A stretch of 51,675 nucleotides of DNA from an uncultured Clostridia bacterium. GTDB taxonomy: Bacteria; Bacillota; Clostridia; Christensenellales; Borkfalkiaceae. The translations under genes were made by a program, and so were the position numbers. Location: assembly GCA_944341075.1 (NCBI GenBank), contig CALVLV010000014.1:1-51675 (forward strand). The letters run 5' to 3'. Positions 28,776 through 36,021 of the stretch are shown in pieces; within the stretch, counting starts at the first letter, position 1; the number at the start of each line of letters is the position of its first letter. The notes below the pieces were generated by a model that made no database searches, was not told the origin of the DNA, and worked only from the letters and a program-made list of their open reading frames with translations.

Positions 28776-28840
28776 ATAATCCAATACACTTATTGTTATG
28801 CCGCAGGGCGCACAACCTTAAAAAAATGGGGAGGTCAGCT

Positions 28841-31060
28841 ATGATTAAACTTATAAAAGGCGGAGTCTATTACATGGAGGGCAAGCTGTTCAAAGAGCGC
28901 GAGGCCTTCATGGTGGAGTCTAAAAAGCAGAAGGCCGTAAAGGGCACCATGGCCTATAAAATTTTAAAGGCGCACAACAAGGGCGACGAAGAAAACCTTA
29001 AAATAAAGTTCGACGCCCTCGCCTCGCATGATATAACCTATGTGGGCATAATTCAGACGGCAAAGGCCTCCGGCCTTGAAAAATTCCCCATATCCTACAC
29101 GCTCACCAACTGCCACAACTCGCTGTGCGCGGTGGGCGGCACCATAAACGAAGACGACCACGTGTTCGGCCTTTCGGCTGCAAAAAAATACGGCGGCAAC
29201 TACGTGCCCCCGCACCTTGCGGTAATACACCAGTACATGAGGGAGGCCGAGGCTAAGTGCGGCGCAATGATACTCGGTTCCGATTCGCACACCCGCTACG
29301 GCGCGCTTGGCACCATGGCGGTGGGAGAGGGCGGCCCCGAACTTGTAAAGCAGCTTTTGGGGCAGACCTACGACGTAAAGCGGCCTGAAATTATAGCCGT
29401 ATACCTAAAGGGCAAGCCCAAAAAGGGCGTCGGCCCGCAGGACGTAGCCATAGCCCTTGTCGGCGCTACTTTCAAAAAGGGCTTTGTAAAAAATAAGGTG
29501 CTCGAATTTATCGGCCCCGGCATAAAAAACCTGTCCATGGACTACCGCCTGGGCATAGACGTAATGACCACCGAAACTACATGCCTCTCCAGCATATGGG
29601 AGACGGACGATACCACTAAAGAATTCTTTAAAATACATGGCAGGGAGGGGGACTTCAAAGAACTTCACCCCGCCCAGCCCGCCTATTACGACGGCGCGGT
29701 GGTAATAGACCTTTCGCGCGTGGAGCCGATGATAGCGCTGCCCTTCCACCCCTCGAACGCCTACACCATAAGGGAAGTTATCGAAAACGCCAAAGATATC
29801 CTCGGCGAGGTGCAGGAGCAGGGCAACAAGCTAAAGGGCGCGCCCACCTTCCGCCTCACCGACAAAATACGCGACGGAAAGATATATGTAGACCAGGGCA
29901 TAATAGCAGGCTGCGCGGGCGGCATGTACGAAAACATTGCCGAAGCCGCCGAAATTTTAAAGGGCAAAAGCTGCGGCAACGGCGAATTTTCTTTGAACGT
30001 ATATCCTCAAAGCCAGCCGGTGTTCAAGTGCCTGGTTGAAAACGGATATATCTCCGCGCTGATGGGCGCGGGCGCCATTGTAAAGACGGCCTTCTGCGGC
30101 CCCTGCTTCGGCGCGGGCGACACCCCTGCAGATAACGCCCTCTCCATCCGCCACACCACCCGCAACTTTGAAAACAGGGAGGGGTCAAAGCTGGGCGAAG
30201 GCCAGCTTTCGGCAGTCGCACTCATGGACGCGCGCTCTATCGCCGCAACGGCGGCAAACGGCGGAGTGCTCACCCCGGGCACCGAGGCTGAGTACACCAA
30301 AAAGCTTAAAAAATACTACTTCGACGGCGAAATATACCAAAAGAGGGTATACCGCGGCTTCGGCCATCCCCTGCCCGAAATTCAGCTGGTATACGGCAAC
30401 AACATAGCCGACTGGCCCGAACAGATACCCCTTGCCAACAGCGTGCTCATGAAGGCGGCGTCTGTGCTCAACGACCCCGTGACCACCACCGACGAGCTGA
30501 TCCCTTCGGGCGAAACGTCGTCTTACCGCTCCAACCCCATGCGTCTTGCGCAGTTCGCGCTCTCGCGCAAAGACCCCGGCTATGTAGACAGGGCAAAGGG
30601 CATACAGCAGGACGAACTTTTCCGCAGGCAGAACGGAACGCTGCCCGAAGAGGTGCTCAAACAGGTGGGCATTGCGCTCGATAAAGACACAATGTACGGC
30701 AGCTGCGTAGTTGCCCGCAAGCCGGGCGACGGCTCTGCAAGGGAACAGGCGGCGTCCTGCCAGCGCGTGCTGGGCGGCGTTGCCAACATCGCCTGCGAAT
30801 ACGCCACCAAGCGCTACCGCTCCAACCTTATAAACTGGGGCATGCTGCCGCTCGTGTGCCGCAACTTCGACTTCAAGCTCGGCGACTATGTCTATATTGA
30901 AAATATCGTCGGCCTTTTAAAGGAAGGGGCGGATGTGGTGCCCGCAAAGCACATTTCTGGCGGAAAGGTAAAGAACATCCAGCTTGAACTCGGCTTCCTC
31001 ACTCAGGAAGAAAAGCAGATAATTCTTGCCGGCTGCCTTATTAACTACAACAAAAAGTAA
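28841..31060 (+). CDS. Stand-alone aconitase-family hydratase
   Basis: Member of the [4Fe-4S] aconitase/isomerase superfamily. The 739-residue product has the four-domain layout, with cluster cysteines at about residues 358 (AGCAGG), 419 and 422 (FCGPCFG), the same spacing as classical aconitases, and the swivel domain motif YGSCVVARKPGDGSAREQAA with a Ser/Arg substrate site. It resembles the 'hydratase' proteins of Clostridia and E. coli YbhJ more than AcnA/AcnB, so the substrate may be another hydroxy-acid. No citrate synthase or isocitrate dehydrogenase gene is near. GGGAGG precedes the ATG at 28841, chosen over an earlier in-frame codon. It is monocistronic with a promoter and a strong terminator. 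Confidence 0.88.
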   Translation: MIKLIKGGVYYMEGKLFKEREAFMVESKKQKAVKGTMAYKILKAHNKGDEENLKIKFDALASHDITYVGIIQTAKASGLEKFPISYTLTNCHNSLCAVGGTINEDDHVFGLSAAKKYGGNYVPPHLAVIHQYMREAEAKCGAMILGSDSHTRYGALGTMAVGEGGPELVKQLLGQTYDVKRPEIIAVYLKGKPKKGVGPQDVAIALVGATFKKGFVKNKVLEFIGPGIKNLSMDYRLGIDVMTTETTCLSSIWETDDTTKEFFKIHGREGDFKELHPAQPAYYDGAVVIDLSRVEPMIALPFHPSNAYTIREVIENAKDILGEVQEQGNKLKGAPTFRLTDKIRDGKIYVDQGIIAGCAGGMYENIAEAAEILKGKSCGNGEFSLNVYPQSQPVFKCLVENGYISALMGAGAIVKTAFCGPCFGAGDTPADNALSIRHTTRNFENREGSKLGEGQLSAVALMDARSIAATAANGGVLTPGTEAEYTKKLKKYYFDGEIYQKRVYRGFGHPLPEIQLVYGNNIADWPEQIPLANSVLMKAASVLNDPVTTTDELIPSGETSSYRSNPMRLAQFALSRKDPGYVDRAKGIQQDELFRRQNGTLPEEVLKQVGIALDKDTMYGSCVVARKPGDGSAREQAASCQRVLGGVANIACEYATKRYRSNLINWGMLPLVCRNFDFKLGDYVYIENIVGLLKEGADVVPAKHISGGKVKNIQLELGFLTQEEKQIILAGCLINYNKK

Positions 31061-31934: not shown

Positions 31935-31963
31935 TTGTCAATTTTGTGCGTTGGTGATATAAT
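31935..31963 (+). promoter_or_regulatory. Promoter of the TM1266-type gene and leader RNA
   Basis: TTGTCA (31935-31940), 17-bp spacer and TATAAT (31958-31963). The predicted start near 31970 places the whole structured leader in the transcript. Confidence 0.8.
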
Positions 31964-31969
31964 AGCCAT

Positions 31970-32090
31970 TGCCTGAACGGAAAGGCGTTGCCTGACTGCA
32001 AAGGGGTGAATAGGTATTTTAAGTTTCTGCCGCGCTGCGCGCGGCAGGGCGTTTCCGTTTTCCCCGCTTTTTTCAGGCGGGGAGTTTTTT
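31970..32090 (+). ncRNA. Candidate cis-regulatory leader with alternative pairing (switch-like)
   Basis: The 121-nt leader has (a) two tandem ~19-nt related units starting TTGCCTGA (31969 and 31988); (b) a strong stem CTGCCGCG/CGCGGCAG (32027-32034 with 32040-32047); (c) a terminator-type hairpin TCCCCGC/GCGGGGA (32061-32067 with 32077-32083) followed by T6 and then directly the ATG. The Shine-Dalgarno GGGGAG (32079-32084) is inside hairpin (c). Segments near the 5' end can pair with the expression region: AACGGAAA (31976-31983) with TTTCCGTT (32052-32059), and GCCTG of the first unit with CAGGC (32074-32078), which would break hairpin (c). This is the layout of a riboswitch or attenuator. 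I do not recognise a known class. Confidence 0.65.
32061..32090 (+). terminator. Terminator/SD-sequestering hairpin before the TM1266 gene
   Basis: 7-bp stem (32061-32067 with 32077-32083), 9-nt loop, then TTTTTT ending one base before the ATG. Because the ribosome site lies in the 3' arm, formation would block both elongation and translation. Confidence 0.7.
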
Positions 32091-32339
32091 ATGTCTGAAA
32101 ACAGAGTGGCAATAATCAGCATAATAGTGGAGGATCGCTCCTCCGCCGCGCAAATAAACGCGCTTCTGTCTGAGTACGGCGATTACATAGTCGGCCGCAT
32201 GGGCGTGCCGTACAAACAGAAGCATGTATCGGTCATGTGCGTAGTCGCCGACGCCCCCGCGGAGGTGCTCAATTCGCTCACGGGCAAAATAGGCAGTCTA
32301 AGCGGCGTTTCTGCAAAGACTTTAATGGCAAAAATTTGA
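32091..32339 (+). CDS. TM1266-family iron-only hydrogenase system regulator
   Basis: Small ACT-like protein (82 residues) of the family named after Thermotoga TM1266 and usually found near [FeFe]-hydrogenase maturation genes (hydE, hydF, hydG). Family features: N-terminal VAIISIIVEDRSSAAQINALL, the central GDYIVGRMGVPY and the closing GKIGSLSGVSAKTL. No metal or DNA-binding motif is visible, and its regulatory role in the family is suggested by context rather than shown. Here no hydrogenase gene is near; the gene is followed after 94 nt by an ABC importer operon. It sits right after a switch-like leader, so its expression is probably controlled in the 5' UTR. Confidence 0.9.
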   Translation: MSENRVAIISIIVEDRSSAAQINALLSEYGDYIVGRMGVPYKQKHVSVMCVVADAPAEVLNSLTGKIGSLSGVSAKTLMAKI

Positions 32340-32433: not shown

Positions 32434-33459
32434 ATGAAAAATTATAAAAGAGTTATAGCGGCCGCGGCATGCGCCGCAACCGCCGCGGTCATGTGCGCAA
32501 CAATGCTCGCCTGCAGCGACGGCGCTGATGCAAACCCTGAATCGGTCAAATTGTTTTCCGTAGCCGCAACAGATGTCGGCGCGCCCGGAATCGACGCCGA
32601 TTATTTTGTAGCGGCAGAACCCGCTGCAACTACCCGTGCCAACGCCACGGGACTTAAATTTGCCGGCGACCTTCAGGAGCTTTACGGGGCGGAAGGCGGG
32701 TATCCGCAGGCTGTGCTTGTAGCTAAAAACGAACTTGTTGAAAGCAATCCTGCTTTTCTTTCGGCTTTTATTGCAGAGGTAGAGGAAAACGCAAACTGGC
32801 TTGCAACAGCCACGGCAAAGACTATAATAGATACAGTTGCCTCGCACCTTCCCGCCGACACAACGCCTACTTTCACCGAAAAAAATCTGAACGCGACTGT
32901 CATAGCAAACTGCGGCATAAACTTTGTTTCCGCCGCGCAGGATAAGCAACGGGTCAACGACTTTATTGAAGAAATGGCAGAAGTAGACCCTTCTTCGGTG
33001 GGCACGATTACAGATTCGTTCTTTTGCGGAACGCTCGGCACGGCTTCTCAACCCTCTGAAATAAGCGTATATATGCCCGACGGCGCGCCCGCGCTCGCTC
33101 TTGCAAAGCTCATGAACGAAGAAAACCAATTCGGACAGACGAGCGTGGAATACAACGTTGTGCCCGCAAATACTATAGGCGCCCAGGTCAACGGCGCTGA
33201 TCCTGCGGCAGATATATGCGTTCTGCCCGTAAATGCGGCCAGCAAACTGCTCGGCAGCGGCGAAAAGTATAAAATGCTAGGCACTGTGACAAACGGCAAT
33301 CTTTACCTTCTCACCAAGGACGGGGAGAGCATAACGGAGCAAAACGTTTCGTCGCTCGCCGGCAAAAAAATAGGCGTCATCAATCTTGCCAACGTACCCG
33401 GTCTTACGCTTAAAATAATACTCAATAAATACGACGTTGCCTTTGAAACGTTGCAATAA
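32434..33459 (+). CDS. ABC transporter substrate-binding lipoprotein, apparently circularly permuted
   Basis: Extracytoplasmic binding protein of the NMT1/SsuA/TauA-like group (type II fold). The ATG at 32434 (AAGGAG upstream) gives 341 residues with a signal peptide and lipobox MLAC (Cys 27). The order of conserved segments is reversed from what I know of this family. The usual C-terminal half comes first (DYFVAAEPAATTRAN, DLQELYGAEGGYPQAVLVAK, a helix and DSFF), and the usual N-terminal half follows after a short linker (ISVYMPDGAPALALAKLM, ADICVLPVNAASKLLG, GTVTNGNLYLLT, LAGKKIGVINLANVPGLT), where the protein stops. The cut lies just after the first lobe, as expected for circular permutation. 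Substrate unknown; likely a small organic or amine-type ligand. It is followed by its permease and ATPase. Confidence 0.88.
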   Translation: MKNYKRVIAAAACAATAAVMCATMLACSDGADANPESVKLFSVAATDVGAPGIDADYFVAAEPAATTRANATGLKFAGDLQELYGAEGGYPQAVLVAKNELVESNPAFLSAFIAEVEENANWLATATAKTIIDTVASHLPADTTPTFTEKNLNATVIANCGINFVSAAQDKQRVNDFIEEMAEVDPSSVGTITDSFFCGTLGTASQPSEISVYMPDGAPALALAKLMNEENQFGQTSVEYNVVPANTIGAQVNGADPAADICVLPVNAASKLLGSGEKYKMLGTVTNGNLYLLTKDGESITEQNVSSLAGKKIGVINLANVPGLTLKIILNKYDVAFETLQ

Positions 33460-33471
33460 TAAAAGATAAAA

Positions 33472-34242
33472 GTGAAAAATTTTAAAAGGGCTACCCTTCT
33501 GAACATTGCATGGGCGGCGGTAGCCATTGTAATAATTTTTATAGTATGGCTGATAGCGTATGCATGCGTTAAAAACGACTATGTCGTCCCGGATATCGGG
33601 TCTACTTTTGCCGCGTTTGCCGAACTGTTCACGCAAAGTTCGTTCTACTCGGCCTTTGGCAACACATTTTTGCGCACTCTGATATCGTTCGCCGTCTCCT
33701 TTGTGCTCGCAGCGGCGCTGGCTTCCGTTTCCGCGGTGTGCCGTCCGTTCAGAACGGTATTCGCCTTCATTATCTCCATTCTGCGCACTTTGCCTACAAT
33801 GGCTATAACGCTTATGTTGCTTATATGGACAAATCCGCGCGTCGCGCCTGCCATTGTCACCGCGCTTGTGCTCTTCCCTATGGTATATTCGCAATTTGTG
33901 GCGGCAATAGACGGGGTCGACCCCGGGCTTTTGCAGATGGCGCAGGTGTACCGCGTTTCCCCGCGCGAAAAACTCACAAAAATCATTCTTCCGTCTGTCG
34001 GGTCAGAGGTAGGCGCCCAGATCGGCGCAGGACTTTCGCTGGGAATAAAAATAATGGTTTCGGCAGAGGTTCTCTCGTATACGCTTAACAGCCTCGGCGG
34101 CATAATGCAGCAGGCAAGGCTGTACGCCGAAATGCCGCGTTTTGCGGCGCTGACAATAGTTTGTATTATTACGGGACTGGTTTTCGAGCTTCTCACTTAC
34201 TGCCTTAACATGGCGTTCAGCCGAAGGAGGGGCGGGCGATGA
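33472..34242 (+). CDS. ABC transporter permease (BPD transp 1 type)
   Basis: Integral membrane subunit of the importer. Six predicted helices over 256 residues, with a long N-terminal periplasmic segment and the EAA-like loop just before DPGLLQMAQVYRVSPREKLTKIILPSV (about residues 145-170), which docks the ATPase. The first membrane segment follows MKNFKRATLLN, so the GTG at 33472 is taken as start; the ribosome site is weak. It overlaps the ATPase gene as ATGA and starts 12 nt after the binding protein. The pattern fits the SsuC/TauC/NMT-type permeases. Confidence 0.9.
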   Translation: MKNFKRATLLNIAWAAVAIVIIFIVWLIAYACVKNDYVVPDIGSTFAAFAELFTQSSFYSAFGNTFLRTLISFAVSFVLAAALASVSAVCRPFRTVFAFIISILRTLPTMAITLMLLIWTNPRVAPAIVTALVLFPMVYSQFVAAIDGVDPGLLQMAQVYRVSPREKLTKIILPSVGSEVGAQIGAGLSLGIKIMVSAEVLSYTLNSLGGIMQQARLYAEMPRFAALTIVCIITGLVFELLTYCLNMAFSRRRGGR

Positions 34243-34904
34243 TAGAGCTTAAAAACATAACAAAAAAATACGGCGGCGTGACTGTATACGAAAATTTCGA
34301 CTTTGCCATAGAGGAGGGCAAAATAACCTGCATACTCGGCGAAAGCGGCAGCGGCAAGACCACCCTTTTGAACATGCTGGCAGGCCTTACGCCGTACAGC
34401 GGCACCATTTCGCCCTCGCTCACATGTTCGTATATCTTCCAGCAGCCCCGCCTTGTGCCCTCGCTAACCGTCATGGGCAACCTTTCGCTTGTGTGCAAAG
34501 ACCGCGCCGCCATACGCTCAATGCTCGCCCGCGTGGGGCTTGAAGGCAGGGAAAACAGCTACCCGCGTAGGCTTTCTGGCGGTCAGGCGCAGCGCGTGGC
34601 AATAGCCCGCGCCTTTCTGTATCCCTCGCGGCTGATGCTGCTCGACGAGCCCTTTTCCTCGCTCGACCTCGCACTCAAAATAAAAATGGCGCAGCTCTTT
34701 CTCGATATACGCAGATCGGACGGCCGCACGGCGGTGTTCGTCACGCACGACGTGGACGAGGCGCTGATGCTGGCAAATGATATAGCCATACTGCGCGGCG
34801 GCAGGGTGGTAAGGCGCCTTTCGCCCGAGGGCGAACCTGTTGCCGACCTGTTTGCCCGCCAGGCGCTGCGCGGCGAGCTTATCTCTGCCCTTATTTCGGA
34901 GTGA
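34239..34904 (+). CDS. ABC transporter ATP-binding protein (SsuB/TauB-like)
   Basis: Cytosolic ATPase that drives the importer. All motifs are present: Walker A GESGSGKTT near residue 34, Q-loop in FQQPRLVPSLTV, signature LSGGQAQR, Walker B LMLLDEPFSSLD and H-loop VFVTHDVDEA. The 221-residue length is typical of the SsuB/TauB/NitD group, although the region between helical-domain segments is shorter than average. It starts within the permease gene (ATGA overlap) and completes a three-gene importer. Confidence 0.95.
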   Translation: MIELKNITKKYGGVTVYENFDFAIEEGKITCILGESGSGKTTLLNMLAGLTPYSGTISPSLTCSYIFQQPRLVPSLTVMGNLSLVCKDRAAIRSMLARVGLEGRENSYPRRLSGGQAQRVAIARAFLYPSRLMLLDEPFSSLDLALKIKMAQLFLDIRRSDGRTAVFVTHDVDEALMLANDIAILRGGRVVRRLSPEGEPVADLFARQALRGELISALISE

Positions 34905-35480: not shown

Positions 35481-35502
35481 TATGCCGCAATTGCGGCAAT
35501 AT
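35481..35502. promoter_or_regulatory. Palindrome between DUF1294 gene and purE, possible operator
   Basis: TGCCGCAATTGCGGCA (35482-35497) is a perfect 16-bp palindrome. It is flanked by CATACT (35479-35484, minus) and TATACT (35500-35505, plus), so it could serve as an operator for both genes. It also shares GCCGCA with the short intergenic element, so it may be only a relic of that. Confidence 0.4.
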
Positions 35503-35523
35503 ACTCGGCAGGAGGGTTATTTT

Positions 35524-36021
35524 ATGGCAAAAGTTGCCGTTATAATGGGTTCCAAGTCAGACTTTGCGGTGGTAAAGCCCGCCGTAAAGGTGCTTAAAGA
35601 TTTCGGCGTACAGGCAGAGGTGCGCGTTATTTCCGCACACCGCACCCCGGACGAGGCGCACGCCTTCGCCGCGTCTGCAAAGGATAGCGGGTTCGAGGCC
35701 ATCATCTGCGCCGCAGGCAAGGCCGCACACCTCGGCGGCGTTATAGCCGCGTACACTACGCTGCCCGTCATCGGCCTGCCCGTAAAGACGGATATGATGG
35801 GCGGGCTCGACAGCCTTCTGTCCATAGTGCAGATGCCCTCGGGCATACCCGTTGCCACCGTCGGCGTGAACGGCGGCGAAAACGCCGGCCTGCTCGCGCT
35901 GCAGATACTGGGCATAAAATACCCTGAAATAGCCGAAAAGCTTGCCGCATACAAGGCAAACATGGCAAACAAGATAGCCGCAGACGACGCCGCCCTGCAG
36001 CAGGAGCTTAAGGAGCTTTAA
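35524..36021 (+). CDS. purE: N5-carboxyaminoimidazole ribonucleotide mutase (PurE, class I)
   Basis: Converts N5-CAIR to CAIR in purine synthesis. The ATG at 35524 (AGGAGG upstream) gives 165 residues beginning MAKVAVIMGSKSDFAVV. Class I signatures are the GSKSD phosphate loop, SAHRTPDEAHAFA and GKAAHLGGVIAAYTTLPVIGLPVKT. PurK, which would make its substrate, is not in the window. It is the first purine gene; a ~480-bp repeat-filled gap with a possible terminator separates it from purC, so the cluster may have more than one promoter. Confidence 0.97.
   Translation: MAKVAVIMGSKSDFAVVKPAVKVLKDFGVQAEVRVISAHRTPDEAHAFAASAKDSGFEAIICAAGKAAHLGGVIAAYTTLPVIGLPVKTDMMGGLDSLLSIVQMPSGIPVATVGVNGGENAGLLALQILGIKYPEIAEKLAAYKANMANKIAADDAALQQELKEL

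What the first reader, a model, noticed from the sequence alone, without database searches (positions are those of the whole stretch)
31970..32090. Switch-like RNA leader controlling a TM1266-type regulator gene
The leader has a promoter at the right distance, tandem 5' units (TTGCCTGA), a strong central hairpin, and a terminator whose T6 ends one base before the ATG and whose 3' arm contains the Shine-Dalgarno. The 5' segments AACGGAAA (31976-31983) and GCCTG (31971-31975) are complementary, in order and nested, to TTTCCGTT (32052-32059) and CAGGC (32074-32078); pairing them would open the terminator. This is seen in sequence; that it senses a ligand or protein is inference. TM1266 proteins are tied to [FeFe]-hydrogenase assembly, so an Fe-S, redox or cofactor signal is plausible. 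I recognise no known riboswitch class.
Basis: partly seen in the sequence, partly recalled or inferred. Interest (0 to 1): 0.9.

Follow-up and report, generated by a model that had tools for sequence, protein, structure and literature searches.

The report
Twin-loop RNA switch beside TM1266 genes
The leader carries a small, two-fold symmetric RNA hairpin that matches no family in the RNA library checked; it recurs in many Clostridia-like bacteria before genes for hydrogenase assembly or a nutrient importer, and it probably switches them off when a regulator, possibly the neighbouring TM1266 protein, grips it.

Summary
The two 5' units (31972-32004) pair with EACH OTHER: P1 CCU/AGG, a GA/AA loop, P2 of 4 bp, an AA/GA loop, P3 AGG/CCU. 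Covariation is strong (42 sequences: 92.8% paired against 76.4% shuffled; 71 against 21.5 double-change cells). No Rfam family reaches its threshold. Hits occur in 48 of 347 genomes of the order and 29 of 391 of the class, before TM1266, an SsuA/NMT1-like ABC importer, hydE, hydG or aspA-hydF. A second form abuts the Shine-Dalgarno of the importer gene or hydG. All 48 order genomes and 28 of 29 class genomes also encode TM1266, some on another contig. The window's genome shows no HydG, so hydrogenase is not the constant partner. Best reading: an OFF switch. Free strands pair with the terminator's 5' arm; bound as a hairpin, they release the terminator or cover the ribosome site. TM1266, NikR-C-domain-like without a DNA-binding domain, is the prime suspect for the bound factor; a small molecule is the main rival. 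Binding and function are untested.

The parts
31935..31963 (+). sigma-70-type promoter TTGTCA-N17-TATAAT; expected start about 31968-31971, so the element would lie at the very 5' end of the RNA
   Evidence: 11 of 12 matches; start site inferred
31972..32004 (+). twin-loop element (hairpin): P1 31972-31974/32002-32004 (CCU/AGG); GA 31975-31976 with AA 32000-32001; P2 31977-31980/31996-31999 (ACGG/CUGC, first position A.C); AA 31981-31982 with GA 31994-31995; P3 31983-31985/31991-31993 (AGG/CCU); apical loop 31986-31990
32025..32049 (+). central hairpin between element and terminator; sequence varies between relatives
32060..32090 (+). intrinsic terminator (stem 32060-32084) and T6 (32085-32090) abutting the ATG; in relatives its 5' arm competes for the element (weak in the window itself)
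32079..32084 (+). Shine-Dalgarno GGGGAG within the terminator 3' arm
   Evidence: sequence
32091..32339 (+). TM1266-family protein (82 aa), predicted beta-alpha-beta-beta-alpha-beta fold like the NikR C-terminal domain
32434..33459 (+). ABC substrate-binding protein, SsuA/NMT1-like, circularly permuted relative to homologues
33472..34242 (+). ABC permease (BPD_transp_1)
34239..34904 (+). ABC ATPase

Best explanation
The leader holds a cis-regulatory RNA element that matches no Rfam family: a short hairpin made of two nearly identical units (CCUGA-N4-AAAGG) that pair head to head, giving a pseudo-two-fold symmetric stem with two GA/AA internal loops. SHOWN by comparison: the fold, its recurrence, its gene partners, its two placements (before a terminator; directly on a Shine-Dalgarno). 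INFERRED: the hairpin is too weak to form alone and is held by a bound factor. When free, its strands pair with the terminator's 5' arm and transcription reads through (ON). When bound, the hairpin is fixed and the terminator forms, or in the second placement the ribosome site is covered (OFF). The most likely bound factor is a TM1266 multimer, so that TM1266 represses its own operon and further operons in trans, relieved or enhanced by a signal that TM1266 senses.
For: Fold: RNAalifold recovers it unprompted. Covariation: 34 sequences, score 0.416 against 0.196 shuffled; 42 wider sequences, 0.499 against 0.169, and P3's third pair occurs as GC, AU, CG, UA and GU; 21 SD-placed copies, 100% of cells paired. 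Needs a partner: its second P1 pair has probability below 0.05 in 22 of 32 isolated leaders. Anti-terminator: before the 3' arm is made, mean pairing of the terminator 5' arm with the element is 0.76, against 0.47 (arm shuffled) and 0.44 (element shuffled) in 32 leaders. OFF when bound: copies abut the SD of the SBP gene, of hydG in 5 genomes and of TM1266 in one. TM1266: all 48 R1-positive genomes of 347 encode it, 198 do overall (hypergeometric p 1.2e-13), and 28 of 29 R2-positive of 391, 236 overall (p 4.8e-6; the 28 compared by eye). Of 30 class loci fetched only for their TM1266 score, 11 have an R2 hit (E <= 0.1) 88-190 nt upstream on the same strand. In G078, G374, G322 and G331 the element sits at the importer and TM1266 lies on another contig. 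Of 37 order genomes that I picked, 35 show no HydG and 33 of those carry TM1266. TM1266 keeps basic residues R5, R36, K/R42, K/R44, K66, K76.
Against: No binding data of any kind. Most TM1266 genomes give no element hit (150 of 198 in the order, 208 of 236 in the class), though the models miss divergent copies (G260; 3-bp P2 forms). The co-occurrence is partly trivial because TM1266 is usually the next gene, and genomes are not independent; one class hit genome (G499) has no TM1266. The models include the window and near relatives (4 of the 48 order genomes contributed to R1). The NikR C-domain fold is not known to me to bind RNA, and conserved basic residues also fit an anionic ligand. The anti-terminator is weakest in the window itself (0.21, the one leader of 32 below 0.3). 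Elements swapped between leaders score almost as well (23-31 of 32 against 31), so part of the signal is composition. A duplex-energy test gave only a mean z of -0.63.
Confidence: 0.5

Rival explanations
1. Small-molecule riboswitch: the twin loops are two aptamer sites for a metabolite tied to both the importer and H-cluster assembly; TM1266 is just a co-regulated gene.
For: Conserved loop nucleotides and two expression platforms (terminator, SD) are typical of riboswitches; the importer gene is next, without TM1266 between, in L047, L057, L079 and L080, and hydE or aspA is next in L145, L149, L135, L138.
Against: Only about four conserved nucleotides per strand and loop, no large pocket; genomes without a HydG hit keep it, so an H-cluster metabolite is unlikely; every order-level hit genome has TM1266.
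Confidence: 0.28
2. Protein-bound attenuator, but the protein is not TM1266 (a general RNA-binding or antitermination protein).
For: Symmetric hairpin resembling dimer sites; marginal stability alone.
Against: A general factor would predict many unrelated sites, but R1 gives one strong site per positive genome (weak second hits at E 0.05-0.1 in 4 of 61) and R3 sites lie only between TM1266 and the importer gene; TM1266 co-occurs.
Confidence: 0.15
3. Only a plain terminator/attenuator with chance 5' repeats, or a translational brake without a ligand.
For: The terminator is strong and abuts the ATG.
Against: Covariation, and spread with a conserved core over many families.
Confidence: 0.04

Closest known systems
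LicT/SacY-type ribonucleic antiterminator (RAT) hairpins (recalled, no call)
   Same: Short hairpin with two similar internal loops and pseudo-two-fold symmetry, bound by a dimer, at a leader terminator
   Different: Sequence differs; no BglG-type regulator is next to it; here binding is inferred to favour termination rather than prevent it
Autoregulatory ribosomal-protein leaders such as rplJL (recalled; start of one abstract seen in the listing)
   Same: First gene product proposed to bind its own leader by attenuation
   Different: No ribosomal protein; also placed at SD sites inside operons and proposed to act in trans
HMP-PP riboswitch (PMC6478431, passages seen)
   Same: A conserved structured part and an intrinsic terminator before the gene
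   Different: There the aptamer is embedded in the terminator; here element and terminator are separate, and the gene partners differ
NikR
   Same: TM1266 model matches the NikR C-terminal domain (TM-score about 0.86)
   Different: TM1266 has no ribbon-helix-helix DNA-binding domain

Membership tests
Any of 4227 Rfam 15 families | covariance-model score at or above gathering | tested here: not met
   window: 0 hits at gathering; leader at E<=10: best 29.2 bits to anti-hemB (gathering 49.5), over central hairpin and terminator; 11 and 15 loci of relatives at E<=1: no gathering-level match; one sub-threshold hit (L10_leader, 30.6 bits, gathering 44) covers L181's leader
PyrR binding site (RF00515) | model score at or above 54 bits | tested here: not met
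   22 bits
HMP-PP riboswitch | conserved aptamer inside the terminator hairpin | tested here: not met
   conserved element is 5' and separate from the terminator, whose loop varies; whether Rfam holds this family was not checked
BglG/LicT RAT | site next to a BglG-family regulator gene | tested here: not met
   neighbours are TM1266 and an ABC importer; control by a distant regulator not tested
BglG/LicT RAT | dimeric protein binds the two internal loops | not testable with these tools
   needs binding assay
TM1266 family (TIGR03959, PF21699) | score over curated cut-off | tested here: met
   103.1 against 60.8 bits, and 101.7 against 27
NikR | C-terminal regulatory-domain fold | tested here: met
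   Foldseek on the predicted model
NikR | N-terminal ribbon-helix-helix domain | tested here: not met
   82 aa; the one domain covers nearly the whole chain
Riboswitch (as a kind) | direct binding of a small ligand | not testable with these tools
   no biochemical assay

The most novel reading that the evidence does not exclude
TM1266, a NikR-C-domain-like protein family annotated only as a putative hydrogenase regulator, is an RNA-binding sensor that reads a dyad-symmetric twin-loop hairpin and controls H-cluster assembly and an ABC importer by both attenuation and SD occlusion, in cis and in trans.
Probability: 0.45. Interest if true: 0.9.

Novelty: new variant of a known kind. Interest (0 to 1): 0.78.

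Why it matters
It gives a testable molecular role to TM1266, found in 236 of the 391 genomes of the class searched and named only as a putative regulator, without a DNA-binding domain. It suggests a shared RNA regulon linking [FeFe]-hydrogenase maturation (hydE, hydG, aspA-hydF) with an uncharacterised importer, present even in genomes without a HydG hit. If TM1266 binds it, this would be an RNA-binding role for the NikR/ACT-like fold and a compact part for building RNA switches in anaerobes.

Tried and rejected
Rejected: the window-only helix AACGGAAA:TTTCCGTT as the conserved switch (5'-unit duplex test mean z -0.24). Rejected: membership in Rfam families. Rejected: 'follows hydrogenase' as the general rule, because no HydG (E <= 1e-20) was found in the window's genome or in 35 of 37 further genomes; the 28-32% identical hits in G017, G024, G027, G031 and G049 were taken as other radical-SAM enzymes (judgement, not tested). 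Rejected: 'follows the importer' as the general rule, because hydE/hydG/aspA loci carry it. Judged false positives: L143 (inside a hydE-like reading frame), L150 (before a Rex-like gene, no TM1266 in that genome, P3 broken) and, at order level, the four weak hits L084-L087 without a recognised partner gene; they stay in the counts. Of the 236 class genomes with TM1266 only the 30 best-scoring loci were fetched in that search. Importer substrate: not identified; the nearest solved relative by profile is 3hn0, 'nitrate transport protein' (E 2.4e-31). Corrections to my notebook: says P(elem) is near 0 in 26 of 32 leaders, one search gives 22 of 32 below 0.05; one search puts sigma-factor and thymidylate-synthase neighbours at all three of L092, L093 and L095, which is too broad; one search lists L057 as another cut point, but it shares the window's.

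Full report
WHAT IS IN THE WINDOW. The leader 31968-32090 starts from a near-perfect promoter and ends in a terminator whose T6 touches the ATG of a TM1266 gene. The TM1266 gene is followed by a substrate-binding protein, a permease and an ATPase. The genus is probably Candidatus Coproplasma: contigs of the same lengths appear in named records.

THE CONSERVED STRUCTURE. TM1266 was found in 43 of 61 related genomes and leaders of 39 loci were read. 34 of them share two units, CCTGA-N4-AAAGG with variations, 3-8 bases apart. The units pair with each other: P1 (CCU/AGG), a 2x2 loop GA/AA, P2 (first position A.C, A-U, G-U or G-C, then three pairs), a 2x2 loop AA/GA, and P3 (AGG/CCU), closed by an apical loop. 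RNAalifold gives the same fold unprompted. On 34 sequences 92.1% of cells pair, against 81.7% when partners are shuffled, and sliding the partners by 1-3 columns drops this to 25-59%. On 42 more diverse sequences the covariation score is 0.499 against 0.169, with 8 of 10 pairs showing changes on both sides. Sequences are related, so the shuffle counts are not probabilities.

DISTRIBUTION. Model R1 finds one copy in the window's genome and hits in 48 of 347 genomes of the order; four of these 48 had contributed to the model. Of the 48, 38 lie just before TM1266, one is cut by a contig end, four precede the importer's binding-protein gene without TM1266 beside it (L047, L057, L079, L080), one precedes hydG, and four weak ones have no recognised partner. 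Model R2 hits 29 of 391 genomes of the class. By my reading 19 precede TM1266, three an ABC importer gene, two hydE, two aspA, one hydG, and two look false; 23 of the 29 loci (L135-L157) were fetched only after the model was built. HydE, HydG, HydF and aspartate ammonia-lyase were confirmed by family models for six proteins, and a seventh, divergent one passes HydG's cut-off; the other names are by eye or by similarity to these. aspA is followed by hydF in L193. Looked at the other way, of 30 class loci fetched for TM1266 alone, 11 have an R2 hit (E <= 0.1) within 190 nt upstream, and all 17 such hits in that search lie on the TM1266 strand.

TWO PLACEMENTS. Besides the copy before a terminator, a second form lies directly on a ribosome site. 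Between TM1266 and the binding-protein gene, 21 distinct sequences of the general form UUU-RA-N4-NA-AGG-loop-CCU-GA-N4-GA-AAA-GGAG were collected; all 210 cells pair, with 23 double-change cells against 6.5 shuffled. Model R3 finds such copies in 10 of 41 relatives at E <= 0.01, each in that same gap (positions compared). The window's own gap has none. Directly before hydG, elements touching the SD occur in G301, G512, G556, G058 and G043 (hydG confirmed for all but G556). In L017 the TM1266 copy itself carries the SD and no terminator is seen.

HOW IT MAY SWITCH. Alone, the hairpin is weak: its second P1 pair has probability under 0.05 in 22 of 32 leaders, over 0.5 in 3. In RNA ending before the terminator's 3' arm, the 5' arm pairs with the element with mean probability 0.76; shuffling the arm gives 0.47 and shuffling the element 0.44, the observed value being higher in 31 and 29 of 32 leaders. 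Swapping elements between leaders hardly lowers the count (23-31 of 32 in 20 swaps, against 31), and the window itself is the weakest case (0.21). A duplex-energy test gave a mean z of only -0.63. So an anti-terminator is likely for the family and uncertain for this very leader. The SD placement independently suggests that the bound hairpin means OFF. This direction is inference.

WHO BINDS. TM1266 occurs in 198 of 347 order genomes, and in all 48 with an element (p 1.2e-13); in the class in 236 of 391, and in 28 of 29 with an element (p 4.8e-6). Much of this follows from adjacency, and genomes are not independent. The telling cases are genomes where the element stands before the importer while TM1266 lies elsewhere: G078, G374, G322 and G331, and G533 and G556. 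G302, of the same family, has neither TM1266 nor an element hit; whether it has the importer was not tested. No HydG was found in the window's genome or in 35 of 37 order genomes that I picked, 33 of which have TM1266, so the constant companion of the element is TM1266. TM1266 is predicted with high confidence (pLDDT 94) as a ferredoxin-like domain matching T. maritima TM1266 (2nzc) and the NikR regulatory domain, and 135 distinct homologues largely keep six basic positions. A symmetric protein on a pseudo-symmetric hairpin is attractive but untested. Against it, most TM1266 genomes show no element with these models, although variants are missed: G260 carries a clear copy with P1 changed to CCC/GGG (by eye), and several TM1266 loci show a 3-bp P2 (by eye).

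KNOWN OR NOT. No Rfam family matches at gathering strength. Searches for TM1266 with riboswitch (no paper), TM1266 alone (5 papers), hydG/hydE with RNA-motif terms (20 of 118 listed), hydrogenase maturation with leader-RNA terms (12 of 283 listed), 'iron-only hydrogenase system regulator' (4 papers) and 2NZC (6 papers) listed no paper whose title or abstract start describes such an element. Two motif-discovery papers and one review contain none of the hyd terms searched in their main text (PMC11109978, PMC8632094, PMC7266159; supplements and figures not seen). The large 2017 motif survey of Weinberg and colleagues (recalled) is not held, so a report there cannot be excluded beyond Rfam.

VERDICT. 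A real RNA element, undescribed in what could be searched; mechanism likely, binder open.

Noticed in passing
window 32434-33459: The ABC substrate-binding protein is circularly permuted: residues 208-341 match the start and 29-197 the end of the L012 homologue. At least two other cut points occur (L052/L053; L063/L077), while many relatives keep the usual order. Recurrent natural circular permutation of a binding protein deserves its own study.
   Followed up: partly
L007, between element and terminator: A long inserted repeat-like stretch separates element and terminator, yet both look intact (by eye).
   Followed up: no
L162, L164, L175, L184, L187: Leaders carry a second, related hairpin in tandem after the first, e.g. 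with GGG/CCC in the P3 place (by eye).
   Followed up: no
L092, L093, L095: TM1266 without a visible element in its leader, in genomes without a HydG hit; a sigma-factor-like gene end lies upstream in L092 and L095, a thymidylate-synthase-like gene downstream in L092 and L093 (by eye).
   Followed up: no
L146 557-1069: Element and TM1266 followed by a small membrane protein that looks like an ECF-transporter S component (by eye; no NCBIfam hit at 1e-10).
   Followed up: no
window 28793-31060 and 35482-36021: An aconitase gene upstream recurs in 22 of the 34 loci L001-L034 (loci differ in reach), and purE downstream in L031 and L033; no functional link tested.
   Followed up: no
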